Of a DNA stretch of 64,000 nucleotides, positions 2-62,498 are shown piece by piece. Both the position numbers and the translations under genes were made by a program. The stretch comes from a virus. The notes under the pieces were generated by a model. That model worked only from the letters and a program-made list of their open reading frames with translations. It was not told the origin of the DNA and ran no database searches. Within the stretch, counting starts at the first letter, position 1, and every line of letters starts with the position of its first letter. Location: positions 24,152 through 88,151 of the IMG/VR virus record IMGVR_UViG_3300035698_012970. One strand, written 5' to 3'.

Positions 2-2722
2 CTATACTTTGGTATATTAGCACCTGGAGAAATAGTAGAACATACATTTGCTCAATCTATAGATATGACAGCAGCAGGTGATTATGAATTAACTTTCCAT
101 GCTAATATCTTAAACGATACATTACAAGTTCAGAATAATACTTTAAATGTAATTGTGACAAGTATTAATATGATAGAAAACTTTCCTTGGGTTGAGCCTT
201 TTGATAGTTTTCCTATTCCTGGGTGGTTTGCCAATACTATATCTGTATGGGTGCCAAATGTAGGACAATCGCCAAGTAATACTTGGTTATCATACGCAAA
301 CACAGCTGTATTTGCTAATATGTATTTTTGGCCTAATGGATGGGCAGATTATAGATCACCTCCAATATTATTAACAGAACATTCAACTTTATTATTTGAT
401 TGGTCAAGTGCATTTAGTCCATTAGGATTAGAAGATGCATTTGAGGTACAAATATCGACAGACTTAGGTGTTACTTGGACAACATTATGGTATCGTCAAG
501 GTATTGATTTACAATCAGAAGATGGCGGAACAAGTCAAGCTCCTGGAACTTATGCTACAGAAAGTTTTGACCTTACACCTTATACTGGTGAAATTGTTTA
601 CATTAATTTTAAAGCAATTACTGGTCATGGTGCTAATATATATGTAGATAATGTGTCGGTGTTACATAAAAACACACTTGATATAGAATTACTAGATATA
701 TACGCAAGTAATGAATGTGAATTAACAAATACTGAACATATTAATTTCTTAATTGATAATGATGGGTTACTACCTATCAATGAGTTTATGATCGTATACC
801 AAGTTAATGGTACATCATATCTTGAGAATGTAAACGCAACAATATTACCAACAGATTCACCATTTGTATACACATCAACTAATGTATTTGATATGTCAAT
901 TGCTGGTGATTATATAATAAGTGCTAACCTTATTTTGGTTGGTGATAATGAAGTAGATAATAAAGTTGAAACAATTCAAAGTATTTATACAATCGATACA
1001 TTCCCGTTTACTGAAGATTTTGAATTAGGGTATACAAACTACTTTTACTTTGGTGAGAATAAACATTCAGAGGTTGAAGTCTTTCAGATTGATACAACAT
1101 TAGCTCAAAGCTGGTATGAATTACAAGCGAACACATATTATAATGGTAACGTTGGTCACTTCGTTAAGATGTCAGCACAAGATGCTGGTGCATTTGGTTG
1201 GGCTGGTAATACATATGAACTAGCTTGGTCTTCAGAGAAACGTATCTCTGAAATATATAGTTGTCCTATTGATGCAACATCATTAACAACACTAGAATTA
1301 AAGGTAGACTTAAAACAATTCTTTAAATATCATACATACTATACTTGGTTTAGAGTATTAGTTAATGATAGTGTAATTGGTGACCTTGGTGGTAATACAA
1401 CGTACCAACCAGGAACTGAATACAGTGACGATCTTATACAGATCACATATAATCTAAACGAACATGCTGGAACAGTATTTAATCTTAAATTTCAAGCTGT
1501 AAATAAGTATGACGAGGACATATACCCAATGGGTAATATGACAACAATAGATAATATCACACTACAAGAGGTACCATTAGTAACTCAAGAACTTGATCTT
1601 AAAACGGGTTGGGGAATGATGTCAACCTACATTGAACCATTAGAACCTAGTTTTGATACCCTATTTGCAAATACAGCATCTGATATAATGTTAATCAAAG
1701 ATGATAATGGTATGGTTTATTGGCCATTATATAGTTTAAATATGATTGGTGATATTAGTATATTTGAAGGTTATCAAATAAAAACATATCATCAAATGAT
1801 GTATGATATGGTAGGTTATGCTGCTATCCCAGAAGAAAATGAATTTACAATTCCTTCAGGTTGGAGTATTATACCTTATATGAGAGATAATCCTGGTGCT
1901 GTTGATTTAGTATTAGCATCAATCACAAATGATATTATATTAGTTGGTGATGAGAATGGAATGGTTTATTGGCCATATTATGGTGTTAACCAAGTTGGTA
2001 ATATGCTTGATGGTGAAGGATATAAGATGAATACATTAAATTCAATTACGTTTACATTCCCATCAAATACAGACCCAGTGATTCTTGCTGGTTCAGGTAG
2101 TAATAAAACAGTAGTGAAGGATATGGTGAACTATGATAAAGTTGAACCGACTAGCAGTAATATGTATATCGCTATTGAATCTGATAAAATGCATTATGGT
2201 GATGAATTAGCGGTGTATTCAAACGATAAATTAATTGGTAGTACTGTTGTTCAGAAAAATGGTGTGGGTATTATAACAGTGTGGGGTAACGATGCTGATA
2301 TAAATGACCAGAAAGTAGCAAATGAAGGCGAAATTTACACGATAGAGCTATTCAGTTATGATGATGGTGCAACAAGTAAACTATCAAATTTGGTCTTTAA
2401 AATAGGTTCTGATGTATATGAAACAAATTCAATTGTAATCATTACAGATTTTTCAATTGAATTCGAAGCCAAACTATATCAAAGCTACCCAAACCCAACA
2501 AATGGTTTAACAACAGTTAAGTTTAGTATAACAAATAAAGACTTTGTTGTTATACAACTTTATGATAATTTAGGTAAAAATGTTTATACAATAGCACATG
2601 GCATGTATACTGAAGGTACACATACTATTGACATTAATATCTCATCACTTAAGCCTGGAAATTATCATTATATTATGACAACTCCTAGCGTTAAGTTACA
2701 GAAACAATTAACAATCATATGA
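2..2722 (+). CDS. Secreted surface protein with T9SS (Por) C-terminal sorting domain, 5' end missing
   Basis: The frame is open to the first codon of the window, so the true start lies outside; the first internal ATG is at 65. The visible part has two jelly-roll, choice-of-anchor-J-like segments (roughly residues 60-220 and 330-520), then a tandem pair of about 70-residue repeats sharing 'GMVYWP' (near residues 575 and 655). The last 80 residues read 'LYQSYPNPTNG...GNYHYIMTTP...KQLTII', the signature of the type IX secretion sorting domain, which directs export across the outer membrane and attachment to the cell surface in Bacteroidetes. It is the only large plus-strand gene here. It could be a phage-encoded surface or secreted protein, or host DNA next to an integrated element; the window cannot decide. 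Confidence 0.85.
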   Translation, partial: LYFGILAPGEIVEHTFAQSIDMTAAGDYELTFHANILNDTLQVQNNTLNVIVTSINMIENFPWVEPFDSFPIPGWFANTISVWVPNVGQSPSNTWLSYANTAVFANMYFWPNGWADYRSPPILLTEHSTLLFDWSSAFSPLGLEDAFEVQISTDLGVTWTTLWYRQGIDLQSEDGGTSQAPGTYATESFDLTPYTGEIVYINFKAITGHGANIYVDNVSVLHKNTLDIELLDIYASNECELTNTEHINFLIDNDGLLPINEFMIVYQVNGTSYLENVNATILPTDSPFVYTSTNVFDMSIAGDYIISANLILVGDNEVDNKVETIQSIYTIDTFPFTEDFELGYTNYFYFGENKHSEVEVFQIDTTLAQSWYELQANTYYNGNVGHFVKMSAQDAGAFGWAGNTYELAWSSEKRISEIYSCPIDATSLTTLELKVDLKQFFKYHTYYTWFRVLVNDSVIGDLGGNTTYQPGTEYSDDLIQITYNLNEHAGTVFNLKFQAVNKYDEDIYPMGNMTTIDNITLQEVPLVTQELDLKTGWGMMSTYIEPLEPSFDTLFANTASDIMLIKDDNGMVYWPLYSLNMIGDISIFEGYQIKTYHQMMYDMVGYAAIPEENEFTIPSGWSIIPYMRDNPGAVDLVLASITNDIILVGDENGMVYWPYYGVNQVGNMLDGEGYKMNTLNSITFTFPSNTDPVILAGSGSNKTVVKDMVNYDKVEPTSSNMYIAIESDKMHYGDELAVYSNDKLIGSTVVQKNGVGIITVWGNDADINDQKVANEGEIYTIELFSYDDGATSKLSNLVFKIGSDVYETNSIVIITDFSIEFEAKLYQSYPNPTNGLTTVKFSITNKDFVVIQLYDNLGKNVYTIAHGMYTEGTHTIDINISSLKPGNYHYIMTTPSVKLQKQLTII

Positions 2723-2988: not shown

Positions 2989-3654
2989 TTATTTATCGTC
3001 TTCTTCAGTTTTAATAAAGATCTTATCAAACTTATAAGCCAAATGCTCATATAAAGGTTTTCCAGTATAAGAGAATCTAGTTAATAAAATTCTAAATTCA
3101 TAGGCATCAAAAATAGTATATGTAAAACCATCCCTGTAATTACCGTTTGAAGATTCTAGTAACTCATCCCACTTAACACCTCTTGCTTCAAAATCCTCGT
3201 CACTAACGCCTTCCGGTGTATCAGTTTGATTCTGATAATGGTAATCCTCAAGTTCTAAGGTTTCCACTATTTTATCAATGATCGTATATTGGTTTCTTTC
3301 ATTAGTAAAGAATTTAATATACCAATAATCAGCATCATAAAAGATCGAACAAGATAAATATGCACTAATATTAATCTTTGATGTTGAGGTTTGATTTTTT
3401 TCAAGCATTGATTCAATCCAAAAATCATCTACGTTACCTTTTTTATGTTCATCAATTGTATATTGAGCCATTGAATTCTTAGGATTATCACTAAGATCTT
3501 TTAACGCTTTTGCAATACTCATTGAATGAACTAAGCGTAGATATGATTCGTCATTAGCTATGACTTCTATTGCGATTTCCTTGCATTTTTTTAATAATGC
3601 TAGAATATCTCTATCCTTTTTAATTCGGTATGCACTATAGATTTTTGTACTCAT
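2989..3654 (-). CDS. Hypothetical protein (221 aa)
   Basis: Soluble, acidic-tailed protein with no signal peptide or membrane segment. Its ATG overlaps the TGA of the upstream macro-domain gene (ATGA), so the two are probably translationally coupled. The central part is rich in aromatic residues (YDADYWYIKFFTNERNQY), which suggests a folded beta-rich domain. No family recognised. Confidence 0.75.
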   Translation of the reverse strand: MSTKIYSAYRIKKDRDILALLKKCKEIAIEVIANDESYLRLVHSMSIAKALKDLSDNPKNSMAQYTIDEHKKGNVDDFWIESMLEKNQTSTSKINISAYLSCSIFYDADYWYIKFFTNERNQYTIIDKIVETLELEDYHYQNQTDTPEGVSDEDFEARGVKWDELLESSNGNYRDGFTYTIFDAYEFRILLTRFSYTGKPLYEHLAYKFDKIFIKTEEDDK

Positions 3655-4136
3655 TTATTATAATTTACGATTGTTACTCTACAATCTTTTAGCTCGTATT
3701 TTATAATGTTTTCGATTTTTGTCCAGTTTCCACCGGCCAAACCTGCACCAATTCTAGGTAATCCAATGTGTTTACCCTTAAATTCTACATTCATTTTTCT
3801 CATACAAAGAATAAGAGCTTCATAATCGATCGGTGAGATGTTATTATTTCGCTTATAATCATATTGAGTATAAGCATTAACTACATAAAAAATTCCACCC
3901 TCATGAGTATAGCCACTTCCATAGTCGATACACCCAAGTTTAAAAATTGATGGCCCACTTTTTTCCATTGGGTATTCGTCACAACCAAAAGCTTTAGCCA
4001 TTTGTGGTGCAAGGCCTTTACCCATTCTGGATAAACAATTGCATCCATGTACAATCACATCGAACTCACCATTTAAGGCGAGTTCGATTAGGTTTCCTGT
4101 TATAGTTGAAAAATTCAGCATTTTTTTAATTATCAT
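3651..4136 (-). CDS. Macro domain protein (ADP-ribose binding/processing)
   Basis: A 161-residue single macro domain. The N-terminal part 'VIVHGCNCLSRMGKGLAPQM' and the late 'GLPRIGAGLAGGNW' are the ADP-ribose phosphate-binding loops of the Poa1/TARG1-like macro domains. Such enzymes remove ADP-ribose from macromolecules or hydrolyse ADP-ribose-1''-phosphate. In this window it may counter host ADP-ribosylation or balance the phage's own ADP-ribosyltransferase-like proteins; that is inference. It overlaps both neighbours by 4 nt, inside a tight operon. Confidence 0.9.
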   Translation of the reverse strand: MIIKKMLNFSTITGNLIELALNGEFDVIVHGCNCLSRMGKGLAPQMAKAFGCDEYPMEKSGPSIFKLGCIDYGSGYTHEGGIFYVVNAYTQYDYKRNNNISPIDYEALILCMRKMNVEFKGKHIGLPRIGAGLAGGNWTKIENIIKYELKDCRVTIVNYNK

Positions 4137-16553: not shown

Positions 16554-16586
16554 TAAAAGTAATAATACTTTTCGTAATAAAAAAAT
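16554..16586 (-). promoter_or_regulatory. T-tract/TAnnTTTG-class promoter
   Basis: ATTTTTTTATTACG, 11 nt, TACTTTTA. Lies in the 55-nt gap between purA-like and DUF932 genes; the upstream edge touches the purA-like stop codon. Confidence 0.85.
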
Positions 16587-17695
16587 TATGGGTAATCAAA
16601 AGTTATAGCAAATTCCATATCAAGGAAATCTTTGATATCCTTAACGAATTCAGTTTCTGTTTTGGGTCTATAAACTACACCATTTTTAGTGTAAGCCCAA
16701 TTATCTCTAACAAGATCTAAACATGTTATAACAATTGTTCTTCTCTTTGCATTTCTAATATAAGGATCTTTATTTACAGCGTGTTTTAATAAATCAAGAT
16801 CCAACATAGTTCTTCTGAACTCGCCTTGAAATTTATTACGTATATTTGTTTCGTATGGATTTTTCTTTATATCATATTTAATATGTTCATTTGTCATTGG
16901 TCCATTACCATGACGAGTTTGATACGCTCTTGTAACAAGATATAAATTAACATCACTATCATCACCTTCTAATATTTCAAGAACGTTAGTCATGCCAACG
17001 TTAGATCTAGTAACATGTGGAAAAAATCCATAATGTTGATCAAGTAATAATCCTTGTGAACTTTCAAAAATTAAGTTATTATATTCTTTATGAACATTAT
17101 CTCTAATTTCTATATAAGGACTATCTAACATTTCCTGTACTGCATTCAAGAACATAGTTACTCGATTATCCCTCATGTGAGGTGGCATATTATTATCTAT
17201 GTAATAATATTCCCTAAATAGTTTTATTTTAGTTTCAAGGACATCCCTATTTAATAAATCTCCTGCAGTCAACGAGAAGAATTTTTCTTCTCGTTCAAAT
17301 GTATTACCAACTCCTGTTCCGCATGTTCCATGTTTGGAATTCTCATAATCTATTACCTTATCTAATGGTAAAGTAACAGGAGCATCCGGGCTGATGTATA
17401 ACATAGGTTTAACCCCTTTTTCTAAGAGTAGATGTAGTTCCCTTATAAGACCCATTGGATCTACAGTACAATACTTAGTCCAATAAGTTGGGAGTCCTTG
17501 AAAACTACCAGAACCGAAGTTAGAAAAGATATGATATTCTTCTCCGTCTCTTACTCCGTGCCCAGCTTGTTGTCCCCCAGAGAATCTAATTACAATAGTA
17601 GATCCTTTATAAGCTGCAAGTGCGAGGGCATTGACAGTTCTGCCTTTGCCCTCGTCTCCAAATATTAACCCAATTACAACATCCCTTGTTCTCAT
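16586..17695 (-). CDS. purA: Adenylosuccinate synthetase-like enzyme (short form)
   Basis: 369 residues, against about 430 in bacteria. Recognisable motifs: 'FGDEGKGR' (P-loop-like, with catalytic Asp), 'SGGQQAGHG' (catalytic His), 'HGTCGTGVGN', 'FESSQGLLLDQHYGF', 'VTRAYQTRHGNGP'. PurA condenses IMP and aspartate with GTP on the way to AMP. The retained Asp in GDEGKG argues against PurZ, the diaminopurine-pathway variant in which this position is changed. It follows the first vWA gene without a gap. A phage role in purine supply is likely. Confidence 0.88.
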   Translation of the reverse strand: MRTRDVVIGLIFGDEGKGRTVNALALAAYKGSTIVIRFSGGQQAGHGVRDGEEYHIFSNFGSGSFQGLPTYWTKYCTVDPMGLIRELHLLLEKGVKPMLYISPDAPVTLPLDKVIDYENSKHGTCGTGVGNTFEREEKFFSLTAGDLLNRDVLETKIKLFREYYYIDNNMPPHMRDNRVTMFLNAVQEMLDSPYIEIRDNVHKEYNNLIFESSQGLLLDQHYGFFPHVTRSNVGMTNVLEILEGDDSDVNLYLVTRAYQTRHGNGPMTNEHIKYDIKKNPYETNIRNKFQGEFRRTMLDLDLLKHAVNKDPYIRNAKRRTIVITCLDLVRDNWAYTKNGVVYRPKTETEFVKDIKDFLDMEFAITFDYP

Positions 17696-28234: not shown

Positions 28235-28540
28235 TTAATAGCTTCTCTCGTGTAAGTCATCAACATTTTGGGTAACGATTTGAACATCGAAATGTTCTTC
28301 AAGCTCTGCTAATCCAATATGAGCTTTATTCGGTTCACAACCAGCAAGTTGCATTCTCCTTTCATTATAGAATTTCAAAACCAATTCTGGATCTTCGTTC
28401 CATCCTTGTGGTGTAGCTACTTTATTAACATCGTACTTTTCCCAAAGTCCTCCACTATCTCTGAATGTTTGTATTCCAGATTCAGCACTTATTCCAGCAC
28501 CGCTGAATACAACTATTTTCTTTTTATCTTGGTATATCAT
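28235..28540 (-). CDS. Truncated sirtuin (N-terminal NAD-binding part only)
   Basis: 101 residues against about 230 for a full Sir2 protein. 'VVFSGAGISAESGIQTFRD' and 'VTQNVDDLHERSY' are the first two conserved Sir2 blocks (NAD binding). The protein then stops (TAA) before the catalytic His and the zinc-binding module, and the next gene begins 24 nt later, so no hidden remainder follows. It is either a decayed deacylase or a kept NAD-binding fragment. Confidence 0.85.
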   Translation of the reverse strand: MIYQDKKKIVVFSGAGISAESGIQTFRDSGGLWEKYDVNKVATPQGWNEDPELVLKFYNERRMQLAGCEPNKAHIGLAELEEHFDVQIVTQNVDDLHERSY

Positions 28541-36890: not shown

Positions 36891-36923
36891 CAAATATAGA
36901 TCTTATTTACGTAATAAAAAAAT
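36891..36923 (-). promoter_or_regulatory. T-tract/TAnnTTTG-class promoter
   Basis: ATTTTTTTATTACG, 11 nt, TATATTTG; followed by AAAAAACGAAAC as at 52.37 kb. Heads the leader of tRNA array A. Confidence 0.9.
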
Positions 36924-37672
36924 TAAAAGCCAAGTTTTTCCAAATCAAAATAAATATCTAATCCTTCTCTATATTTTTCAGGTATTATTAATTTATTCTT
37001 CATTCTTTGGAAAAAAGCTTCATCCCATACATTTCTAAGTATTTTCATAGTTTGTAAAGGATTTTTTTCTATTTCACTATTAAAATAATCAGCATTTAAT
37101 ACTGTCATTGCTAGTTTCTTAGCTTCAATTCTACCTTTATACTTAAGTACATTTTTGAATCCTTTTGGATATGGATTATACCAGCCCCCACCTAATATCT
37201 CGAATTCACTACAATTAAAATAACTCTCTAATTTTTTAGGAGCCCCTTTTACACTAGTAAGCTCATTACCTAAAACATTATAAGAACCTGTAACCTCTTT
37301 TGGCCCGCCACGAAGATCCTTTAGTTTGTTTGACTGACATCTAAAATCGCCAGTTTTCTTTGGTCCTCCTTTAAGGGTAGTTAATATATTATGATCACAA
37401 TTAAATTCACGGGTAACTTCTTTAGGAGCACCTTCGAGTGTAGCTAAGATATTATGAGAACAATTGAAGTTACCAGTTACTTTATTAAAAACAATTCCAT
37501 TAAAATCACTTAATTCAGACTTAGAGCAATCAAAATCGCCTATAACGTCGATCATACCTTTTATGGTTTCCTTCCATTTACCAATAGTATACTCATTTAA
37601 GAAATCAACTTGCTCTTCGGTTATAGTACTTTCAGATTCATTTAGCTCGTTAAAATATTTTAGATGCTCCAT
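36923..37672 (-). CDS. Repeat protein with capsid-targeting-like N-terminus (249 aa)
   Basis: Starts MEHLKYFNELNE, matching the leader seen on seven proteins here. Residues about 45-160 contain 20-23-residue repeats of the form 'F.C..N.L..L.GAPK.V', a leucine-rich-repeat-like type ('LATLEGAPKEV', 'LTTLKGGPKK', 'LKDLRGGPKEV', 'LTSVKGAPKKL'). The C-terminal 80 residues are helical. First in position of a four-gene block 36.9-39.1 kb whose products share the leader. Probably a head-packaged protein (inference). Confidence 0.7.
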   Translation of the reverse strand: MEHLKYFNELNESESTITEEQVDFLNEYTIGKWKETIKGMIDVIGDFDCSKSELSDFNGIVFNKVTGNFNCSHNILATLEGAPKEVTREFNCDHNILTTLKGGPKKTGDFRCQSNKLKDLRGGPKEVTGSYNVLGNELTSVKGAPKKLESYFNCSEFEILGGGWYNPYPKGFKNVLKYKGRIEAKKLAMTVLNADYFNSEIEKNPLQTMKILRNVWDEAFFQRMKNKLIIPEKYREGLDIYFDLEKLGF

Positions 37673-38182
37673 CTATTTTTTAAAATATTTATCGTACATC
37701 ATTTCACCAATATATCTAATTCTCTTTCCTTGTAACCAAATTTCGTTTGCTTCCTCACACATTGCTTCGGTCATATCATTTCTAACCATATTAATGACAT
37801 TATCATATGCATCAAATGCTTTCTCGCTTATTCCTTTCTCATCTGTAATGATCCCAATAATCTCATTCTCTATTCTTTTTCTGAAAGCTTCTACATGAGT
37901 AACTGCTCTACCAAAAAAATCTTCATAAGACATATCAGATTCATGGATTGGTCTTTTAATAGGATTACCAATACCTCTATCTCTATGTATGGTTTTAATA
38001 TATTGTGCTACGTGCTTGATACTTTCCAATGCAGATTTATCATCTACGTTAAATTGTGTCTTGATCTTAGCTATTAGGGCATCAAAGAGCTCATAAGTTT
38101 TATCATATACCTTTGTAGATGGTAAAATACTTAGTCCTACTCTTTCGTTCATGGATGAATCATATTCTTTTAAGTTTTCCAT
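37673..38182 (-). CDS. Helical protein with capsid-targeting-like N-terminus (169 aa)
   Basis: Starts MENLKEYDSSMNE, then a mostly helical soluble body (about 25-160). It abuts the repeat protein gene with no gap and overlaps its upstream neighbour by 1 nt. No family recognised beyond the leader. Confidence 0.65.
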   Translation of the reverse strand: MENLKEYDSSMNERVGLSILPSTKVYDKTYELFDALIAKIKTQFNVDDKSALESIKHVAQYIKTIHRDRGIGNPIKRPIHESDMSYEDFFGRAVTHVEAFRKRIENEIIGIITDEKGISEKAFDAYDNVINMVRNDMTEAMCEEANEIWLQGKRIRYIGEMMYDKYFKK

Positions 38183-38754
38183 TATTTAATCTCCAAAAAA
38201 GATTTGTTAGGAACTACTGCTGAAATAGATCCTTCATCTTCTCCTATATTTTTATAATAATAACCACTTTTAGCATTACCCATTTTTAAATTCCTCATCA
38301 TCATGATATTTGCTTTTTCGTCAGTATGCGGATTATTTGTGGTATTAGTCATTTGACCTATGATTCTAACCGGGAATACTATTGGCTTAGAATCAAAAGG
38401 GATTTGATTATTATCAGAATAAACGGCTCTATAATTTCTATCTGTCGTATAGTAATCATCCTCGGGCACATCGCTTCCACAATTATATCCACTATCACAA
38501 TAGTACCCTAATTCATCTTTTTTCCTCTTTAGTGCTTCTTTGCCAGCTAATAATGTTTTCCCATATTCTCTAGTTCCATCCCATTCACCTTCGGCAGGAA
38601 CTCCAATTCTTGCTTGTAATGCTTGTGTTGCAGCTAATTTAGTTCCGATATGAATACCTTTCTTACCACTTAGATCCTTATTTGCCGAGCCGTGATAAAA
38701 TCCTCGACTTCCACTATAATTTTCATTTAAGAATTGTTCCCAATTATTGATCAT
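38182..38754 (-). CDS. ADP-ribosyltransferase/2'-PT-like protein with capsid-targeting-like N-terminus
   Basis: Starts MINNWEQFLNE. Directly after it, 'GFYHGSANKDLSGKKGIHIG' followed by 'TKLAATQAL' resembles the first motif (YHG...GIHIGT..AA) of phage ADP-ribosyltransferase/RNA 2'-phosphotransferase-fold proteins; the C-terminal 'GYYYKNIGEDEGSISAVVPN' could supply the Tyr and Glu. Catalytic identity is uncertain. Overlaps neighbours by 1-4 nt in the leader-gene block. Confidence 0.55.
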   Translation of the reverse strand: MINNWEQFLNENYSGSRGFYHGSANKDLSGKKGIHIGTKLAATQALQARIGVPAEGEWDGTREYGKTLLAGKEALKRKKDELGYYCDSGYNCGSDVPEDDYYTTDRNYRAVYSDNNQIPFDSKPIVFPVRIIGQMTNTTNNPHTDEKANIMMMRNLKMGNAKSGYYYKNIGEDEGSISAVVPNKSFLEIK

Positions 38755-39092
38755 CCTGTTGAATCTATAAATTTGATCTCCTTAGCGGTAATACCGTCTG
38801 GCTTTTCGTGGGATTTACTACGCCCACGGTGTGTATGTATAAAATATCCATTCTTGTCAATACCCATATCAAACCCATTTGGGTAATTGCCTTTACTGAT
38901 TTTCTTTTTAAGGTCTGGGTGTAGATTAAGTCCTGAGATTATTCCATTTTTGGCTCTTGAATATTCCTTACATAAAGAAACAGCAACCTCTTTAAGTTCT
39001 TTGGAAATTCCTTTTAGATATTTAATTGATTTTTCGATTGGTACGCTATCGTCAATCTGCTTAAAATTTTCGTAAAGTTCTAAATGTTCCAT
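38751..39092 (-). CDS. Hypothetical protein with capsid-targeting-like N-terminus (113 aa)
   Basis: I place the start at ATG 39092 (MEHLELYENFKQ), because the longer frame begins with TTG and ATG fits the leader pattern and the 16-nt spacing from GATATATA at 39109-39116. Basic, helical, with 'YFIHTHRGRSKSHEKPDG'. First gene of the leader block. Confidence 0.65.
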   Translation of the reverse strand: MEHLELYENFKQIDDSVPIEKSIKYLKGISKELKEVAVSLCKEYSRAKNGIISGLNLHPDLKKKISKGNYPNGFDMGIDKNGYFIHTHRGRSKSHEKPDGITAKEIKFIDSTG

Positions 39093-48340: not shown

Positions 48341-48811
48341 TTAGTTATAATATTCATTATATCGATCAATAAAAGTTTCATATGAAAAATCCTCATCCTC
48401 ATAATCCGAATATATTAATTCCCAGATATTCGGATCCCTTTTATATAATTCAAGATTTGTAACATGAGGTGCTAAAACATTAAATACAAAATCATCTAAT
48501 ATTCGTGGATTACTGTCAACCTGAGATTTTTGAAATAGTTTTAGAAATTTTTCCTTCTCAATATCGGAAATCGGAAATTTATCAACTTCTTCTTTTGTGA
48601 AATCTTGATCTAAAACATGAAATTCTTCCTCGTCTCCAACGAACCAACATCTAATCATATAATCAATTGTATTGTCATCATTAGTAAAGTTTTTTACCAT
48701 TTCTGTAAATTCACCTTTAAGTAATGGTATATCAAACCCTACATTTCTCAGATCCTTTACTAAATCGGAATTCTCATCTTCAAAGATTTCATAGCTGTCT
48801 ATATGTTCCAT
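48341..48811 (-). CDS. Acidic protein with capsid-targeting-like N-terminus (156 aa)
   Basis: Starts MEHIDSYEIFEDE, close to MEHLELYENF and MEHLKYFNEL of the 36.9-39.1 kb block. The rest is acidic and helical ('FTKEEVDKFPISDIEKEKFL', ending in Tyr/Asp-rich sequence). Has its own GATATATA promoter and terminator, so it forms a single-gene late-type unit inserted next to tRNA-Met. Confidence 0.7.
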   Translation of the reverse strand: MEHIDSYEIFEDENSDLVKDLRNVGFDIPLLKGEFTEMVKNFTNDDNTIDYMIRCWFVGDEEEFHVLDQDFTKEEVDKFPISDIEKEKFLKLFQKSQVDSNPRILDDFVFNVLAPHVTNLELYKRDPNIWELIYSDYEDEDFSYETFIDRYNEYYN

Positions 48812-52818: not shown

Positions 52819-54945
52819 TTAAAATTTAATCTTTACTACTCTCTTAAAATTACCTGTAAGCTTAACTATTACCTCGTCACGTACAGTCGAATTGAAACCC
52901 AATCCTGTTAATTGCTTATCTACAGGTTCCAGCATAGAACTATTTCCTAGTACTTCCATTACCTTTTTATGTTTCAATAAATCTTGTATTAGATTCTCAT
53001 TATGGAAACCCCTTATTTTGTTTGGAGTTTTACAATTATCAAGCATAAACATATAATGCTTATTACCAACCTGATTCTCACCCCAATGATTTGGTGAAAG
53101 ACACATAAGATTTACTTTGTGGAATTGGTTAGTTTCAAGTCCATATATCTCTTTAGATGATGCAGTTTCCGGTAATTTATGATTGATTGAAAACTCACCA
53201 TTCTTTAGTGTTACTTCTGCTATTGGAACATTTCCTTTTACCGCATTGTTATATTCATATGAATATAATTCACCACCAAATTCAATTTCAGCTCTAAATC
53301 CTTTAGAACCACGGGAAGCAAATTGGTTTATCCAAAACTTATATACACCATCTGGCATTCTAGATAAAGTACCCCATGTGATGTTTTCCACAATATCTCT
53401 ATTATTGAATCTATTTGGAGTTGTGATATCAACATCTAAATTACCTAATGTGTTAGGATCACGTTTATTTGAATATCCTATAGATTTACAGTTTGGTTGC
53501 ATACACCAAGCATCCAAATCTGAATTATCGCTAGGATCATTCTCTCCCCACATTATACTAAACCTAAGTACTCCATCGACTTTTCCACCCTTGGTTTTAA
53601 CTGCTTCCTTAATCTGGCTTTTACCAGCTAGGTTACCATTAAACGTCCACGAGTAATTGTTATTCCATTTAAAAATAGGTTTACTTTCCCCATTTTTAGT
53701 GGTTGTCATTGTAACCAGGTTATTTTCGTGAGAGTTCTTTAACAATACCTCTATTGAACTACATCCTGGTAAAATATCTTTCATGAACTTATCAATTTGA
53801 ACTTCCTCAACATTATCAAATTCATTTCTTTTATGGCGTGATTTAGAGGATTTAACATTGTCAAATATAGATACTTTTTTAACCTCACCATCCCCGACAT
53901 TACTATGTAAAATTTCAGATACCTTAATGTCATCAATCGTAGCAAACCTTCTATCAAATGATTCAAGGAAATTGTTATCCTCGACGAATTTTTGTGCCTC
54001 TTCTATTTGTCTCTTAGTAATAGGAGCAACTGCTTTATGATAATTTGCAGGATCTACTCGTTTGTTCCAACTAAGACAAGCTTTATTAAGTTCTTCTCCT
54101 TCTGCTAACTCTGTGCATAGTACACCAATAAGATTGTTCTTAAACTTAGCAATAGTTTCTGGCATTTCATAGGTAGATACCCAAAGCCAATTATCTCTTT
54201 TGGCATTAGTTAGTAAAGTATATTCTTTCTTTGATTTGATTGCAGCATCAACGGAATGTAAATGTGATGTTCCATTAAGTAAGCTATCTTGATTAATAAG
54301 ATCTTTTACTAATTCCAAAGTATCTAATGGTATTTCGACCATAGCTCTTTGGAATACGTTTTTCTTATCCCTATAATCAGCCATAATAGCTTCAACTGAT
54401 CTTCCAGAATTACTTACAAATTTCTTTGGTAAATCTAAATGGAAATGGTCAAAAGTTCTTATCTCGTTTGGTTTTACTACTCCATATAATTCTGCTTCGT
54501 CTTTAGTATACCTTTTAACGTTTCTTGCTGTTCCAAGTCTAAACACTTTGTTATTCTTAGTACAAGATTCATAAGGTAAACTGTTTAACTCATTATATGT
54601 TTCAAAAAATACTTCTTTTATCTTAGAAGTTTTGATTCCGATAGAAAGAGCTTTTGCTGAATCCATATACTCTATATCAGTTTCAACATCAAATAATGAA
54701 ATAGTATTGTAATCGGAATCGATTGCTACTATATTACCATATCTCCTGATGAAATTTTTACAGTGATTACAATTATGAGTACTGCTTTCTGGGTCTCTAA
54801 AAATTGGGTTATTTTCTTTACTGAATGAAGAAATGTATAAATCCCACACTTCCCTACCTGTCAGTTCTACTCTGAATAGTTTACCTGTTTTTAACATTTT
54901 AGTAAACTGTTTTTGTATTACATCATTAAATTTTGATATTCCCAT
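52819..54945 (-). CDS. Large protein with C-terminal DUF2135/YfaP-like domain (708 aa)
   Basis: Second-largest gene here, first from the promoter at 54978-55010. Residues about 1-440 are uncharacterised, with a CNHC pair near 59 and a helical linker about 320-400. Residues about 455-600 read 'LRFSIMWGENDPSDNSDLDA', 'IGYSNKRDPNTLGNLDVDIT', 'IVENITWGTLSRMPDGVYKF', 'AEIEFGGELYSYEY', a pattern of the DUF2135/YfaP-like beta domain often paired with vWA proteins. Two vWA proteins at 17.7 and 19.8 kb may be partners (inference). Function unknown. Confidence 0.7.
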   Translation of the reverse strand: MGISKFNDVIQKQFTKMLKTGKLFRVELTGREVWDLYISSFSKENNPIFRDPESSTHNCNHCKNFIRRYGNIVAIDSDYNTISLFDVETDIEYMDSAKALSIGIKTSKIKEVFFETYNELNSLPYESCTKNNKVFRLGTARNVKRYTKDEAELYGVVKPNEIRTFDHFHLDLPKKFVSNSGRSVEAIMADYRDKKNVFQRAMVEIPLDTLELVKDLINQDSLLNGTSHLHSVDAAIKSKKEYTLLTNAKRDNWLWVSTYEMPETIAKFKNNLIGVLCTELAEGEELNKACLSWNKRVDPANYHKAVAPITKRQIEEAQKFVEDNNFLESFDRRFATIDDIKVSEILHSNVGDGEVKKVSIFDNVKSSKSRHKRNEFDNVEEVQIDKFMKDILPGCSSIEVLLKNSHENNLVTMTTTKNGESKPIFKWNNNYSWTFNGNLAGKSQIKEAVKTKGGKVDGVLRFSIMWGENDPSDNSDLDAWCMQPNCKSIGYSNKRDPNTLGNLDVDITTPNRFNNRDIVENITWGTLSRMPDGVYKFWINQFASRGSKGFRAEIEFGGELYSYEYNNAVKGNVPIAEVTLKNGEFSINHKLPETASSKEIYGLETNQFHKVNLMCLSPNHWGENQVGNKHYMFMLDNCKTPNKIRGFHNENLIQDLLKHKKVMEVLGNSSMLEPVDKQLTGLGFNSTVRDEVIVKLTGNFKRVVKIKF

Positions 54946-59256: not shown

Positions 59257-59568
59257 TTATATATTTGGATTTTTCATTAATGAAAATACCTTTTTATCCC
59301 TTTCTTCCCTTACATAGAAATCATTAAAAGGTGCATTAATTGCTTTAATCCTATTATCATCCTCTAAATACCATTCTGCTAATTCTAAAGCTGCATACAT
59401 TACATCACCAAATTCACCAAATTCATGATTGTCTCCATACCAACCAGTTTGTTCACCATAGTCTCTAAACTCTATAGAAAAACAAGCATTGCTGCCGTTT
59501 TTATAATGTTCTGGCTCTATATGTATGAAAACATTCTTTAATTGTAATTTATTAAGTCTTTCTCTCAT
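59257..59568 (-). CDS. Hypothetical protein (103 aa)
   Basis: 'RLNKLQLKNVFIHIEPEHY' and 'GDVMYAALELAEWYLEDDNR'; soluble. Its start shares one base with the stop of the upstream gene. Unknown. Confidence 0.65.
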   Translation of the reverse strand: MRERLNKLQLKNVFIHIEPEHYKNGSNACFSIEFRDYGEQTGWYGDNHEFGEFGDVMYAALELAEWYLEDDNRIKAINAPFNDFYVREERDKKVFSLMKNPNI

Positions 59569-60209
59569 TATGAAATATATTCATGTTTATTAATTAGTTC
59601 CAATTCGTCAGAATTAATTTCCTTCCCTTCCCATTTTATAGAATCTATAATTAATTTAGTGTTTTTAAATAACCTAATTTCTTTTTCTTCATTAAAAGAT
59701 TCATGCTCTAGGTTCAATCTAAGGGTTTCTATCCAATCGATATGTTCTTGTTTAACTGTGGTTTCGAATAATATTATAGCTGTTTTATTGTCTTGATTGT
59801 GTCCCCAATGTGCTTCCGCAGAATCTTCATCATATGTCCAATATCTGCCAATTCTTTTTACCTTACCAGATTTTAATTTTTCCAAATAATCATCACCAAC
59901 TTTCATTTCTCGATAAAGAGTAATTTGGCTACCTAAGTGAGTAAACATATCTTTTAAATTATCAAACCTGTTTTCTAATTCATACTTAAGCCATTCTTTA
60001 AAATCCTCAGATTGGGTAATTTTATAAACCTCATCTTCATCATCAGGATCTAAATTTTCTCTATGTTCCTCCCAACTATATTGAGCTGCATACGGATCAA
60101 GAAATCCTTTTTCATCTTGTAGTTCGATAAATTTTTTATTTATAACCTCTGATGCACTAATGAAAGATAAACTTTTTTCGAATAAACGAAATGTATTAAT
60201 ATTAATCAT
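59568..60209 (-). CDS. ADP-ribosyltransferase-like protein with capsid-targeting-like N-terminus
   Basis: 213 residues. Starts MININTFRLFEK, a loose version of the leader. The body has the order of an R-S-E ADP-ribosyltransferase: 'ITLYREMKVG' (Arg), 'RIGRYWTYDEDSAEAHWG' (central motif), and 'ESFNEEKEIRLF' (ExE). T4 packages and injects such an enzyme (Alt), which modifies host RNA polymerase. Target here unknown; the central Ser-Thr-Ser is replaced, so activity is uncertain. Confidence 0.6.
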   Translation of the reverse strand: MININTFRLFEKSLSFISASEVINKKFIELQDEKGFLDPYAAQYSWEEHRENLDPDDEDEVYKITQSEDFKEWLKYELENRFDNLKDMFTHLGSQITLYREMKVGDDYLEKLKSGKVKRIGRYWTYDEDSAEAHWGHNQDNKTAIILFETTVKQEHIDWIETLRLNLEHESFNEEKEIRLFKNTKLIIDSIKWEGKEINSDELELINKHEYIS

Positions 60210-60212
60210 AAA

Positions 60213-60935
60213 CTATATATTTGAAATTATCTTATTTTTAAATTCTTTCAGTGTATAAATTACGCTGAAATTAAGGTTTAATTCCTTATATAAATCTAAT
60301 TTATTGAGCCAATATTCATAATCCTTGCCCAACCACTTCTTCCTTTTCTCCCTGTTAATACCATCCAATTCGATCCACTCATCGCTTTCTAACAAATATA
60401 CATCAGATACCTTAGCAGATTCTGGGATTGGTTTATGTGCTTCGAATAGAATCTGATTATCTTCCAATAGTTCATAACATTCTTTTTCCAGAATGGATTC
60501 ATACCTAGTTCCACCCTTTGTTATCCCTTTAGTTCCAAATCCTCCCTTTCTTCCAATCTCTCTTAACCTTTTTCTTTCTTCTATATTCTCACACTGCTTT
60601 TTCTTAGCGATTGATATTTTTTCTCTAGTCTCTGGTAGTATCTCTCTATTCTTCATAAACTTGGAGATATCTTTTCTACGTTCATCAGTAAAGGAGTTTA
60701 ACACGCTATTCTTTATTTTCTCCCTGACCTCTTGTCTATGTGATCCATTATTTATAGACATCCTCTCTTTCTGACTTTCGGTAAGTGGTCTACCCTTTAA
60801 ACTTTTGCTAACTTTTTGGTTAATCTCCTTTCTTTTAGATTTAGTGCTAAACCCTCTAGCACACTTTGGTGAACAGAATCTACCAGATCCATATTCTCCA
60901 CTATGTTCGCTTTCACAATTTTCACAAATTCTCAT
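60213..60935 (-). CDS. PD-(D/E)XK-like homing endonuclease with YGSGRFCS zinc finger
   Basis: 240 residues. Third member with the shared N-terminal finger ('CESEHSGEYGSGRFCSPKCA'). Then NUMOD-like basic repeats (about 45-130), and a third kind of nuclease: 'TRYESILEKECYELLED', 'KVSDVYLLESDEWIELDG' (D...ExD). GATATATA promoter at 60949. Confidence 0.85.
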   Translation of the reverse strand: MRICENCESEHSGEYGSGRFCSPKCARGFSTKSKRKEINQKVSKSLKGRPLTESQKERMSINNGSHRQEVREKIKNSVLNSFTDERRKDISKFMKNREILPETREKISIAKKKQCENIEERKRLREIGRKGGFGTKGITKGGTRYESILEKECYELLEDNQILFEAHKPIPESAKVSDVYLLESDEWIELDGINREKRKKWLGKDYEYWLNKLDLYKELNLNFSVIYTLKEFKNKIISNI

Positions 60936-61384: not shown

Positions 61385-61400
61385 GATTTCTAATAATTTG

Positions 61401-61495
61401 TGACCCCTCTGGGGCTCGAACCCAGGACCCCCTGATTAAATCTTGATATTTCTTAACTAAAGTCAGGTGCTCTAAGCCAACTGAGCTAAGAGGTC
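61401..61495 (-). tRNA. tRNA-Lys (TTT) with 20-nt insertion in the anticodon loop
   Basis: Acceptor GACCTCT/AGGGGTC, stem CCTGA/TCAGG, T-arm CTGGG/CCCAG. Without 61439-61458 the loop would be CTTTTAA, a normal Lys loop. The inserted 20 nt (AGTTAAGAAATATCAAGATT on the minus strand) is too short for a group I intron. Confidence 0.75.
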
Positions 61496-62162: not shown

Positions 62163-62498
62163 TTATTTCTTATTCATCTTCTTTATGATAGCAGCTTGTA
62201 ACGCTTCAGGCAATTTCTTTTGCTTAGCACTTAAACCATTAGGTTTATCGTCCTTCTTATCAGCACATTTGCATTTATCAGCACATTTACATTTACCTTT
62301 ACCAGTACACTTACATTTCTTAGCACATTCACATTTGCTAGCAGCTTTAGCATCAGCTTTACTGTCCTTCTTAGCAGGTTTCTCGCCTTGCTTCTTTAGA
62401 ATAGCATCTTGTAAAGCTTCTGGTAATTTTTTCTGCTTAGCACTTAATTCTTCATTAAGGAATTCATCATATGTGTATACTTTTCTTACTTTTGTCAT
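62163..62498 (-). CDS. Metallothionein-like Cys/Lys-rich protein with capsid-targeting-like N-terminus
   Basis: 111 residues. Starts MTKVRKVYTYDEFLNE, the clearest form of the leader. A 19-residue block 'LSAKQKKLPEALQDAILKK' appears at about 18-36 and again, nearly identical, at about 90-108. Between them lie eight Cys arranged as four CxC pairs in a Lys-rich setting (KCECAKKCKC, GKCKCADKCKC). CxC pairs bind soft metals in metallothioneins. Late-type promoter 24 nt upstream. No known family; metal storage or a head-packaged basic protein are guesses. Confidence 0.7.
   Translation of the reverse strand: MTKVRKVYTYDEFLNEELSAKQKKLPEALQDAILKKQGEKPAKKDSKADAKAASKCECAKKCKCTGKGKCKCADKCKCADKKDDKPNGLSAKQKKLPEALQAAIIKKMNKK

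What the first reader, a model, noticed from the sequence alone, without database searches (positions are those of the whole stretch)
59568..60209. Injected ADP-ribosyltransferase candidate
The product has the R / central / ExE order of T4 Alt/ModA-type enzymes (LYREMK, RYWTYDEDSAEAHWG, NEEKEIRLF) on a leader-bearing protein. If correct, it could modify a host target immediately after infection. The usual Ser-Thr-Ser is altered, so it may have a different acceptor or be inactive.
Basis: partly seen in the sequence, partly recalled or inferred. Interest (0 to 1): 0.7.

Follow-up and report, generated by a model that had tools for sequence, protein, structure and literature searches.

The report
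New phage ADP-ribosyltransferase family, probably head-packaged
This gene of a large bacterial virus encodes an enzyme-like protein of the ADP-ribosyltransferase fold, from a widespread but unnamed virus family, with a start peptide that looks like the tag T4-type viruses use to load proteins into the head and inject them, so it may chemically modify a host molecule at the start of infection.

Summary
The ORF is real (213 aa, minus strand). It belongs to an unnamed phage family: 53 distinct domains collected from IMG/VR contigs and one Rhizobium plasmid, plus phi92 gp246 and its Eowyn and CB7 relatives in cultured phages. No Pfam, NCBIfam or PADLOC model matches; PHROGs only marginally.

With a 51-row alignment AlphaFold2 gives a confident model (pLDDT 91, pTM 0.86). 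The 50 PDB entries realigned to residues 93-211 are known ADP-ribosyltransferases or ART-like folds (Z 3.7-6.1). R100 falls at the catalytic arginine of R-S-E toxins by range offset. R100, W124, T162 and E175-x-E177 are invariant where present. The 'altered' Ser-Thr-Ser is the family's own signature, W-[STA]-[WYF], not decay.

Short relatives start with a T4-like capsid-targeting leader ending in [LIVM]xE, here MININTFRLFE. All eight contigs over 200 kb with the short or fused form carry a T4-type capsid gene; none of three polyvalent-only contigs does. Sequence homology to T4 Alt/ModA was tested and not found.

Best reading: a mono-ADP-ribosyltransferase of a new family, packaged in the head and injected. 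Fold and residues are well supported; packaging is inferred; activity and target are unknown.

The parts
59568..60209 (-). the gene: 213-aa ART-fold protein, ATG start
   Evidence: homologues
60177..60209 (-). leader MININTFRLFE (residues 1-11), T4-type capsid-targeting-like, putative LFE cleavage site; low-confidence in the model (mean pLDDT 51 for residues 1-10)
   Evidence: T4 Alt is cleaved at ITE-6 (PMC5694885)
59934..60176 (-). N-terminal helical region (residues 12-92), shared with the short relatives and several fused ones; left out of the alignment for the polyvalent copies
59589..59933 (-). ADP-ribosyltransferase-fold domain (residues 93-207)
   Evidence: 50 of 50 listed PDB entries are ART-superfamily or ART-like folds
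59910..59912 (-). R100, catalytic-type Arg on the first strand of the ART domain
59835..59840 (-). W124-T125, family form of the Ser-Thr-Ser strand
59679..59687 (-). E175-K176-E177, the E-x-E motif
38182..38754 (-). second leader-bearing protein (MINNWEQFLNE|N) of the same phage, YHGS motif; 50% identical to part of a large ORF in L070, a locus that also holds two domains of the present family

Best explanation
The gene encodes a mono-ADP-ribosyltransferase of a new, R-S-E-like family. It is made late, tagged for the head by an N-terminal T4-type leader, trimmed after LFE-11 by the prohead protease, packaged with the DNA and injected. In the cell it binds NAD+ with R100 and the W124-T125 strand, and E177 (with E175) activates NAD+ and transfers ADP-ribose to a host macromolecule to favour the phage early in infection. 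Shown here: gene, family, ART fold, invariant catalytic-type residues, leader pattern in relatives. Inferred: packaging, cleavage, injection, catalysis. Unknown: target and bond.
For: Fold: AF2 with 51 homologues, pLDDT 91.4, pTM 0.86. Realigned PDB matches over residues 93-211 are all ARTs or ART-like folds: TreTu, TreX, pertussis S1, Vis at 21% identity, PltC, cholera A1, LT, KptA/Tpt1, diphtheria toxin, CARDS, PARPs, pierisin and the ART-like IcmQ and CNFy domains. Model 94 pairs with cholera A1 residue 1 and model 93 with pertussis S1 residue 2, so on the ungapped first strand R100 falls on R7 and R9, their catalytic Arg (established knowledge; offset reading). Residues: R 51/51, W 52/52, S/T 48/52 after it, T162 53/53, E175 and E177 53/53. 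Leader: 18 of 18 hand-read N-termini have [LIVM]xE with E at positions 5-15, against 34.5% of ORFs in the same loci, with clear cases such as MKFHQFINE, MFKSYRNWLNE and MKSFRLWLTE. Heads: all 8 contigs over 200 kb with the short or fused form have Gp23 and 7 have Peptidase_S77; 0 of 3 polyvalent-only ones do. Two proteins of this phage have relatives at 48-61% identity in the 462-kb phage LR756500.1, which has both T4-type genes. T4 Alt itself is head-packaged and cut at ITE-6 (PMC5694885).
Against: No activity data. Z-scores are middling (best 6.1), and Foldseek against PDB gives nothing under E 0.1. No detectable sequence homology to Alt/ModA/ModB. The window's own leader is weaker than those of relatives, and the 88-kb fragment has no head or protease gene. 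Start codons of the 18 N-termini were chosen by eye, the proteins are related, and L079, whose start is ambiguous, was left out. The leaderless cousin CB7_141 is not in the CB7 virion list.
Confidence: 0.62

Rival explanations
1. It is an ART that is not packaged: like T4 ModA/ModB it is made in the cell after infection, and the leader-like N-terminus is incidental.
For: The gene lies among tRNA, homing-endonuclease-like and sugar/methyl-transfer genes, not head genes. Its leader fails the strict pattern. The cousins phi92 gp246 and CB7_141 show no obvious leader, and CB7_141 is not in the CB7 virion list (PMC7344957).
Against: The short relatives share the leader and live in phages with T4-type heads. 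T4 alt too lies away from the capsid genes, between tail genes and DNA ligase. The related domains in polyvalent proteins are of a class held to be injected (PMC5512222).
Confidence: 0.25
2. It is an ART-fold enzyme that destroys or remodels NAD+ (NADase or NAD+ phosphorylase) or acts on a small molecule rather than transferring to a macromolecule.
For: Some ART families do this (RES; PMC9503650). The strand-2 motif W-[ST]-[WYF] is unusual. The phage also carries a Sir2-domain fragment, so it touches NAD+ metabolism.
Against: Both Glu of E-x-E are invariant; E-x-E is typical of macromolecule-modifying R-S-E enzymes, and in RES the conserved S and E are substituted (PMC9503650).
Confidence: 0.08
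3. An ART-like fold without enzyme activity, used for binding (as in some degenerate ARTs).
For: Altered Ser-Thr-Ser; Ala replaces the Ser/Thr after Trp in 4 of 52 domains.
Against: R, W and E-x-E are invariant across highly diverged members, which is hard to explain without catalysis.
Confidence: 0.05

Closest known systems
Escherichia phage phi92 gp246 (YP_009012579.1), with Klebsiella phage Eowyn YP_010644766.1 and Pectobacterium phage CB7_141
   Same: Same family: hhalign 97.6%, E 4e-12; family profile finds phi92 and Eowyn at E 3e-14 and 1e-13. Eowyn's protein is also the best structural match in BFVD (E 1e-6, 193 columns). G-K-Y-W-[ST] and E-x-E are present.
   Different: No obvious leader; annotated as hypothetical; CB7_141 not in its virion protein list.
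T4 Alt (head-packaged ART) and ModA/ModB
   Same: Order R ... [ST] strand ... E-x-E; Alt also has a short leader cut at an IxE site and is injected (PMC5694885).
   Different: No detectable sequence homology; W-[ST]-[WYF] in place of S-T-S; Alt is 682 aa with other domains.
ART domains of polyvalent proteins (Tox-ART-HYD2-like, H-Y-D active site; Iyer et al. 2017, PMC5512222)
   Same: The family occurs in up to four copies within giant multidomain ORFs of the kind described there (L004, L006, L073, L075).
   Different: Active-site pattern here is R-[ST]-ExE, not H-Y-D.
R-S-E toxins with solved structures (Vis, cholera A1, pertussis S1) and Rhs toxins TreTu/TreX
   Same: ART fold over residues 93-211, Z 4-6.
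   Different: Sequence identity 7-21%; different delivery.

Membership tests
ADP-ribosyltransferase superfamily, R-S-E clade | ART fold | tested here: met
   Confident model; the 50 entries listed after realignment are ARTs or ART-like folds, Z 3.7-6.1. Middling Z, so the consistency of the list carries the weight.
ADP-ribosyltransferase superfamily, R-S-E clade | catalytic Arg on the first strand | tested here: met
   R100 on strand 95-104, conserved 51/51; range offset to cholera A1 and pertussis S1.
ADP-ribosyltransferase superfamily, R-S-E clade | Ser (S-T-S) on the second strand | tested here: inconclusive
   W-[STA]-[WYF]: Ser or Thr after Trp in 48 of 52, Ala in 4; which residue takes the Ser role was not superposed.
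ADP-ribosyltransferase superfamily, R-S-E clade | E-x-E before the last strands | tested here: met
   E175 and E177, 53/53; strand 177-180.
ADP-ribosyltransferase superfamily, R-S-E clade | NAD+-dependent ADP-ribose transfer | not testable with these tools
   needs protein and assay
T4 Alt / Mod families | detectable sequence-profile homology to Alt, ModA or ModB | tested here: not met
   Family profile silent in T4 at E<=10; hhalign 3.1% (Mod alignment) and 0.9% (Alt), no better than unrelated window proteins.
T4-type head-packaged (ejected) proteins | short N-terminal targeting leader ending at an [LI]xE-type protease site | tested here: met
   LFE at 9-11; [LIVM]xE in 18 of 18 hand-read members. 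Met as a sequence pattern only; weak in this protein alone.
T4-type head-packaged (ejected) proteins | prohead protease and T4-type capsid in the same phage | tested here: inconclusive
   Absent from the 88-kb fragment; protease in 7 and capsid in 8 of 8 large contigs with the short or fused form, and both in the related LR756500.1.
T4-type head-packaged (ejected) proteins | present in the virion | not testable with these tools
   no proteomics for this phage; leaderless CB7_141 not listed in CB7 virions (PMC7344957)
Polyvalent-protein ART (H-Y-D) | His on strand 1, Tyr on strand 2, Asp on strand 5 | tested here: not met
   Arg, W-[ST], E-x-E instead.
phi92 gp246-like proteins | profile homology over the ART region with the G-x-Y-W-[ST] and E-x-E positions | tested here: met

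The most novel reading that the evidence does not exclude
A previously unnamed ART family with its own active-site signature R / Y-W-[ST]-[WYF] / E-x-E is used by many large phages as an injected effector, both as single leader-tagged proteins and as repeated units of polyvalent proteins, and its unusual second strand reflects an acceptor not yet known for phage ARTs (for example a nucleic acid or a host-defence component).
Probability: 0.3. Interest if true: 0.7.

Novelty: new variant of a known kind. Interest (0 to 1): 0.5.

Why it matters
Phage ARTs act on early events of infection: Alt modifies RNA polymerase, ModB attaches RNA to host proteins, and AcrIF11 blocks CRISPR. A family that no model in Pfam, NCBIfam or PADLOC catches, and PHROGs only marginally, yet is spread over contigs of up to 608 kb and present in cultured E. 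coli, Klebsiella and Pectobacterium phages, gives direct experimental access through phi92 gp246. It also puts R-[ST]-ExE ARTs into polyvalent proteins, where the 2017 survey described H-Y-D ones and said the Alt family was not found, and it suggests a readable rule (leader ending in [LIVM]xE) for predicting other injected proteins of T4-type huge phages.

Tried and rejected
Single-sequence AlphaFold2 gave a useless model (pLDDT 38); not used. A direct tblastn of the protein found no phage record, and the first viral scans with one or two sequences gave nothing; relatives came only through the Rhizobium plasmid hit and then the polyvalent protein in L004. Weak Pfam, NCBIfam and PDB-sequence hits (DUF5412, Ubiquitin_5, SecA, CD2) were judged chance: each hits one or two members of 14 or is an unrelated fold. 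phrog_35613 matches 5 of 14 members at best E 0.0016 and may be the family's PHROG; not proven. The idea that the altered Ser-Thr-Ser means decay was dropped. The overlapping downstream 103-aa gene was considered as a partner: it has no counterpart in the relatives' loci. Both genome-contig scans were empty, so spread in bacteria was not measured. The phi92 genome paper is not in the library. The Bacillus plasmid hit (H1) lies inside a topoisomerase gene and was ignored.

Full report
THE OBSERVATION. It begins 3 bases after the preceding gene (60213-60935, HNH-like) and overlaps the start of a 103-aa gene downstream. The window is part of an 88,151-base IMG/VR virus record at 32.5% GC. A type IX secretion sorting domain in the protein at 65-2722 and the closest named relatives of another window protein (Cellulophaga phages) point to a Bacteroidota host.

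FINDING THE FAMILY. By itself the protein has no convincing relative in Pfam, PHROGs or PDB sequences and none in 50,697 phage records. One plasmid hit (Rhizobium leguminosarum pRlX5, E 1e-4; 27% over 157 aa) gave a two-sequence profile. That found a 2,300-aa ORF with three copies of the domain, and a five-domain profile then opened the family. With two rounds of IMG/VR scans I collected 53 distinct domains, the window's own included. They come in two forms: short proteins of about 185-240 aa (sometimes fused to other parts, such as an acetyltransferase-like stretch in L053), and repeated units in giant multidomain ORFs (three copies in L004 and a fourth in the next ORF; four in L073). In cultured phages the family includes phi92 gp246, its Eowyn relative and CB7_141, none with an assigned function. 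Profile comparison with this group is strong (97.6%, E 4e-12), and the family profile recovers phi92 and Eowyn when their genomes are searched (E 3e-14 and 1e-13).

FOLD. A first model without an alignment failed. With 51 homologues AlphaFold2 reached pLDDT 91.4 and pTM 0.86. Foldseek against the PDB is weak (best E 0.12, PARP13), but realignment of its candidates gives a list in which all 50 entries shown are ADP-ribosyltransferases or domains with an ART-like fold: TreTu/TreX, pertussis S1, Vis, PltC, cholera A1, LT, KptA/Tpt1, diphtheria toxin, CARDS, PARPs, pierisin, IcmQ, CNFy (Z 3.7-6.1, residues 93-211). That IcmQ and CNFy count as ART-like is from my own knowledge. The Z-scores are in the range where caution is advised, so I rely on the uniformity of the list together with the residues. 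In that list model residue 94 pairs with cholera A1 residue 1 and residue 93 with pertussis S1 residue 2; along the uninterrupted first strand this puts R100 at R7 and R9, their known catalytic arginines. This is an offset reading, not a superposition of side chains.

ACTIVE SITE. Across the family R100 is conserved in 51 of 51 domains that include it, G121 and W124 in 52 of 52, T162 in 53 of 53, and both glutamates of E-x-E in 53 of 53. The residue after W124 is Ser or Thr in 48 of 52 and Ala in 4. Invariance of Arg and both Glu in such diverged domains argues for activity.

LEADER AND HEAD. The first 10 residues are the low-confidence part of the model (mean pLDDT 51). Short relatives begin with strikingly T4-like leaders, for example MKFHQFINE|SS (L061), MFKSYRNWLNE|GY (L029) and MKSFRLWLTE|SI (L081); neighbouring genes in several loci do too. 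All 18 N-termini that I read have [LIVM]xE with the Glu at positions 5-15, against 34.5% of ORFs in the same loci. Starts were picked by eye, the proteins are related, and L079, with an ambiguous start, was not counted, so the formal probability should not be taken literally. Published work shows that T4 internal proteins and Alt enter the core by a targeting sequence and are cut by gp21, Alt at ITE-6 and LTE-619 (PMC5694885). Among contigs over 200 kb, all eight with the short or fused form have a Gp23-type capsid gene and seven have Peptidase_S77; none of the three with only polyvalent copies has either (Fisher P 0.006). The present record is a fragment without head genes, but two of its proteins match the 462-kb phage LR756500.1 at 48-61% identity, and that phage has both genes. 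Against packaging: this protein's own leader is weak, and the leaderless cousin CB7_141 does not appear in the published list of CB7 virion proteins (PMC7344957).

MECHANISM PROPOSED. Packaged by its leader, trimmed after LFE-11, injected, then NAD+-dependent mono-ADP-ribosylation of a host molecule. The fold and residues are shown computationally; packaging is inferred; catalysis and target are untested. The main rival is an ART made after infection, like ModA.

KNOWN OR NEW. Head-packaged and polyvalent-protein ARTs are an established theme (PMC5512222, PMC9503650). The present family differs from Alt/Mod by sequence (profile silent in T4 at E<=10; hhalign 3% or less) and from the H-Y-D ARTs of polyvalent proteins by its active site. 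It is not covered by NCBIfam or PADLOC. I therefore call it a new variant of a known kind.

OTHER NAD-RELATED GENES. The same phage has a second leader-bearing protein with a YHGS motif (38182-38754), 50% identical to a stretch of a large ORF in L070 whose locus also holds two domains of the present family, and a Sir2-domain fragment. This fits a phage that works on NAD+ or ADP-ribose at several points, without proving it.

Noticed in passing
window 38182-38754 (-): Leader-bearing 190-aa protein (MINNWEQFLNE) with a YHGS start, 50% identical to part of a large ORF in L070; looks like another injected ART-like effector, no Pfam or PHROG match.
   Followed up: partly
window 36923-39092 (-): Cluster of adjacent genes with similar N-termini (MEHLKYFNELNE, MENLKEYDSSMNE, MINNWEQFLNE, MEHLELYENF): possibly a block of head-packaged proteins. 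Also 48341-48811 (MEHIDSYEIFE) and 62163-62498 (YDEFLNE).
   Followed up: partly
window 28235-28540 (-): 101-aa protein matching only the first half of the Sir2 domain (PF02146, E 3e-22); truncated or split sirtuin.
   Followed up: no
window 3651-4136 (-): Protein with a macrodomain-looking HGCNC..GKG motif but no Pfam match at 1e-3.
   Followed up: no
window 16586-17695 (-): Adenylosuccinate synthetase relative (PF00709, E 2e-44); phrog_1211, named 2-aminooxy adenylosuccinate synthetase, is among the window's PHROG matches, so it may serve modified-purine DNA.
   Followed up: no
window 65-2722 (+): 885-aa protein with a type IX secretion C-terminal sorting domain in a phage record; hints at a Bacteroidota host or a host-derived gene.
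   Followed up: no
window 35093-61635: 18 tRNA genes in three groups (one with unclear anticodon, 61400-61495), with homing-endonuclease-like genes between.
   Followed up: no
window 52819-54945 (-): 708-aa unnamed protein matched in 496 phage records: 61% identical in a 462-kb huge phage, 52% in Cellulophaga phage phi17:2.
   Followed up: partly
L002 3842-4528 (+): Rhizobium leguminosarum plasmid member of the family without an obvious leader; the record is unannotated and the gene's neighbourhood was not studied.
   Followed up: no
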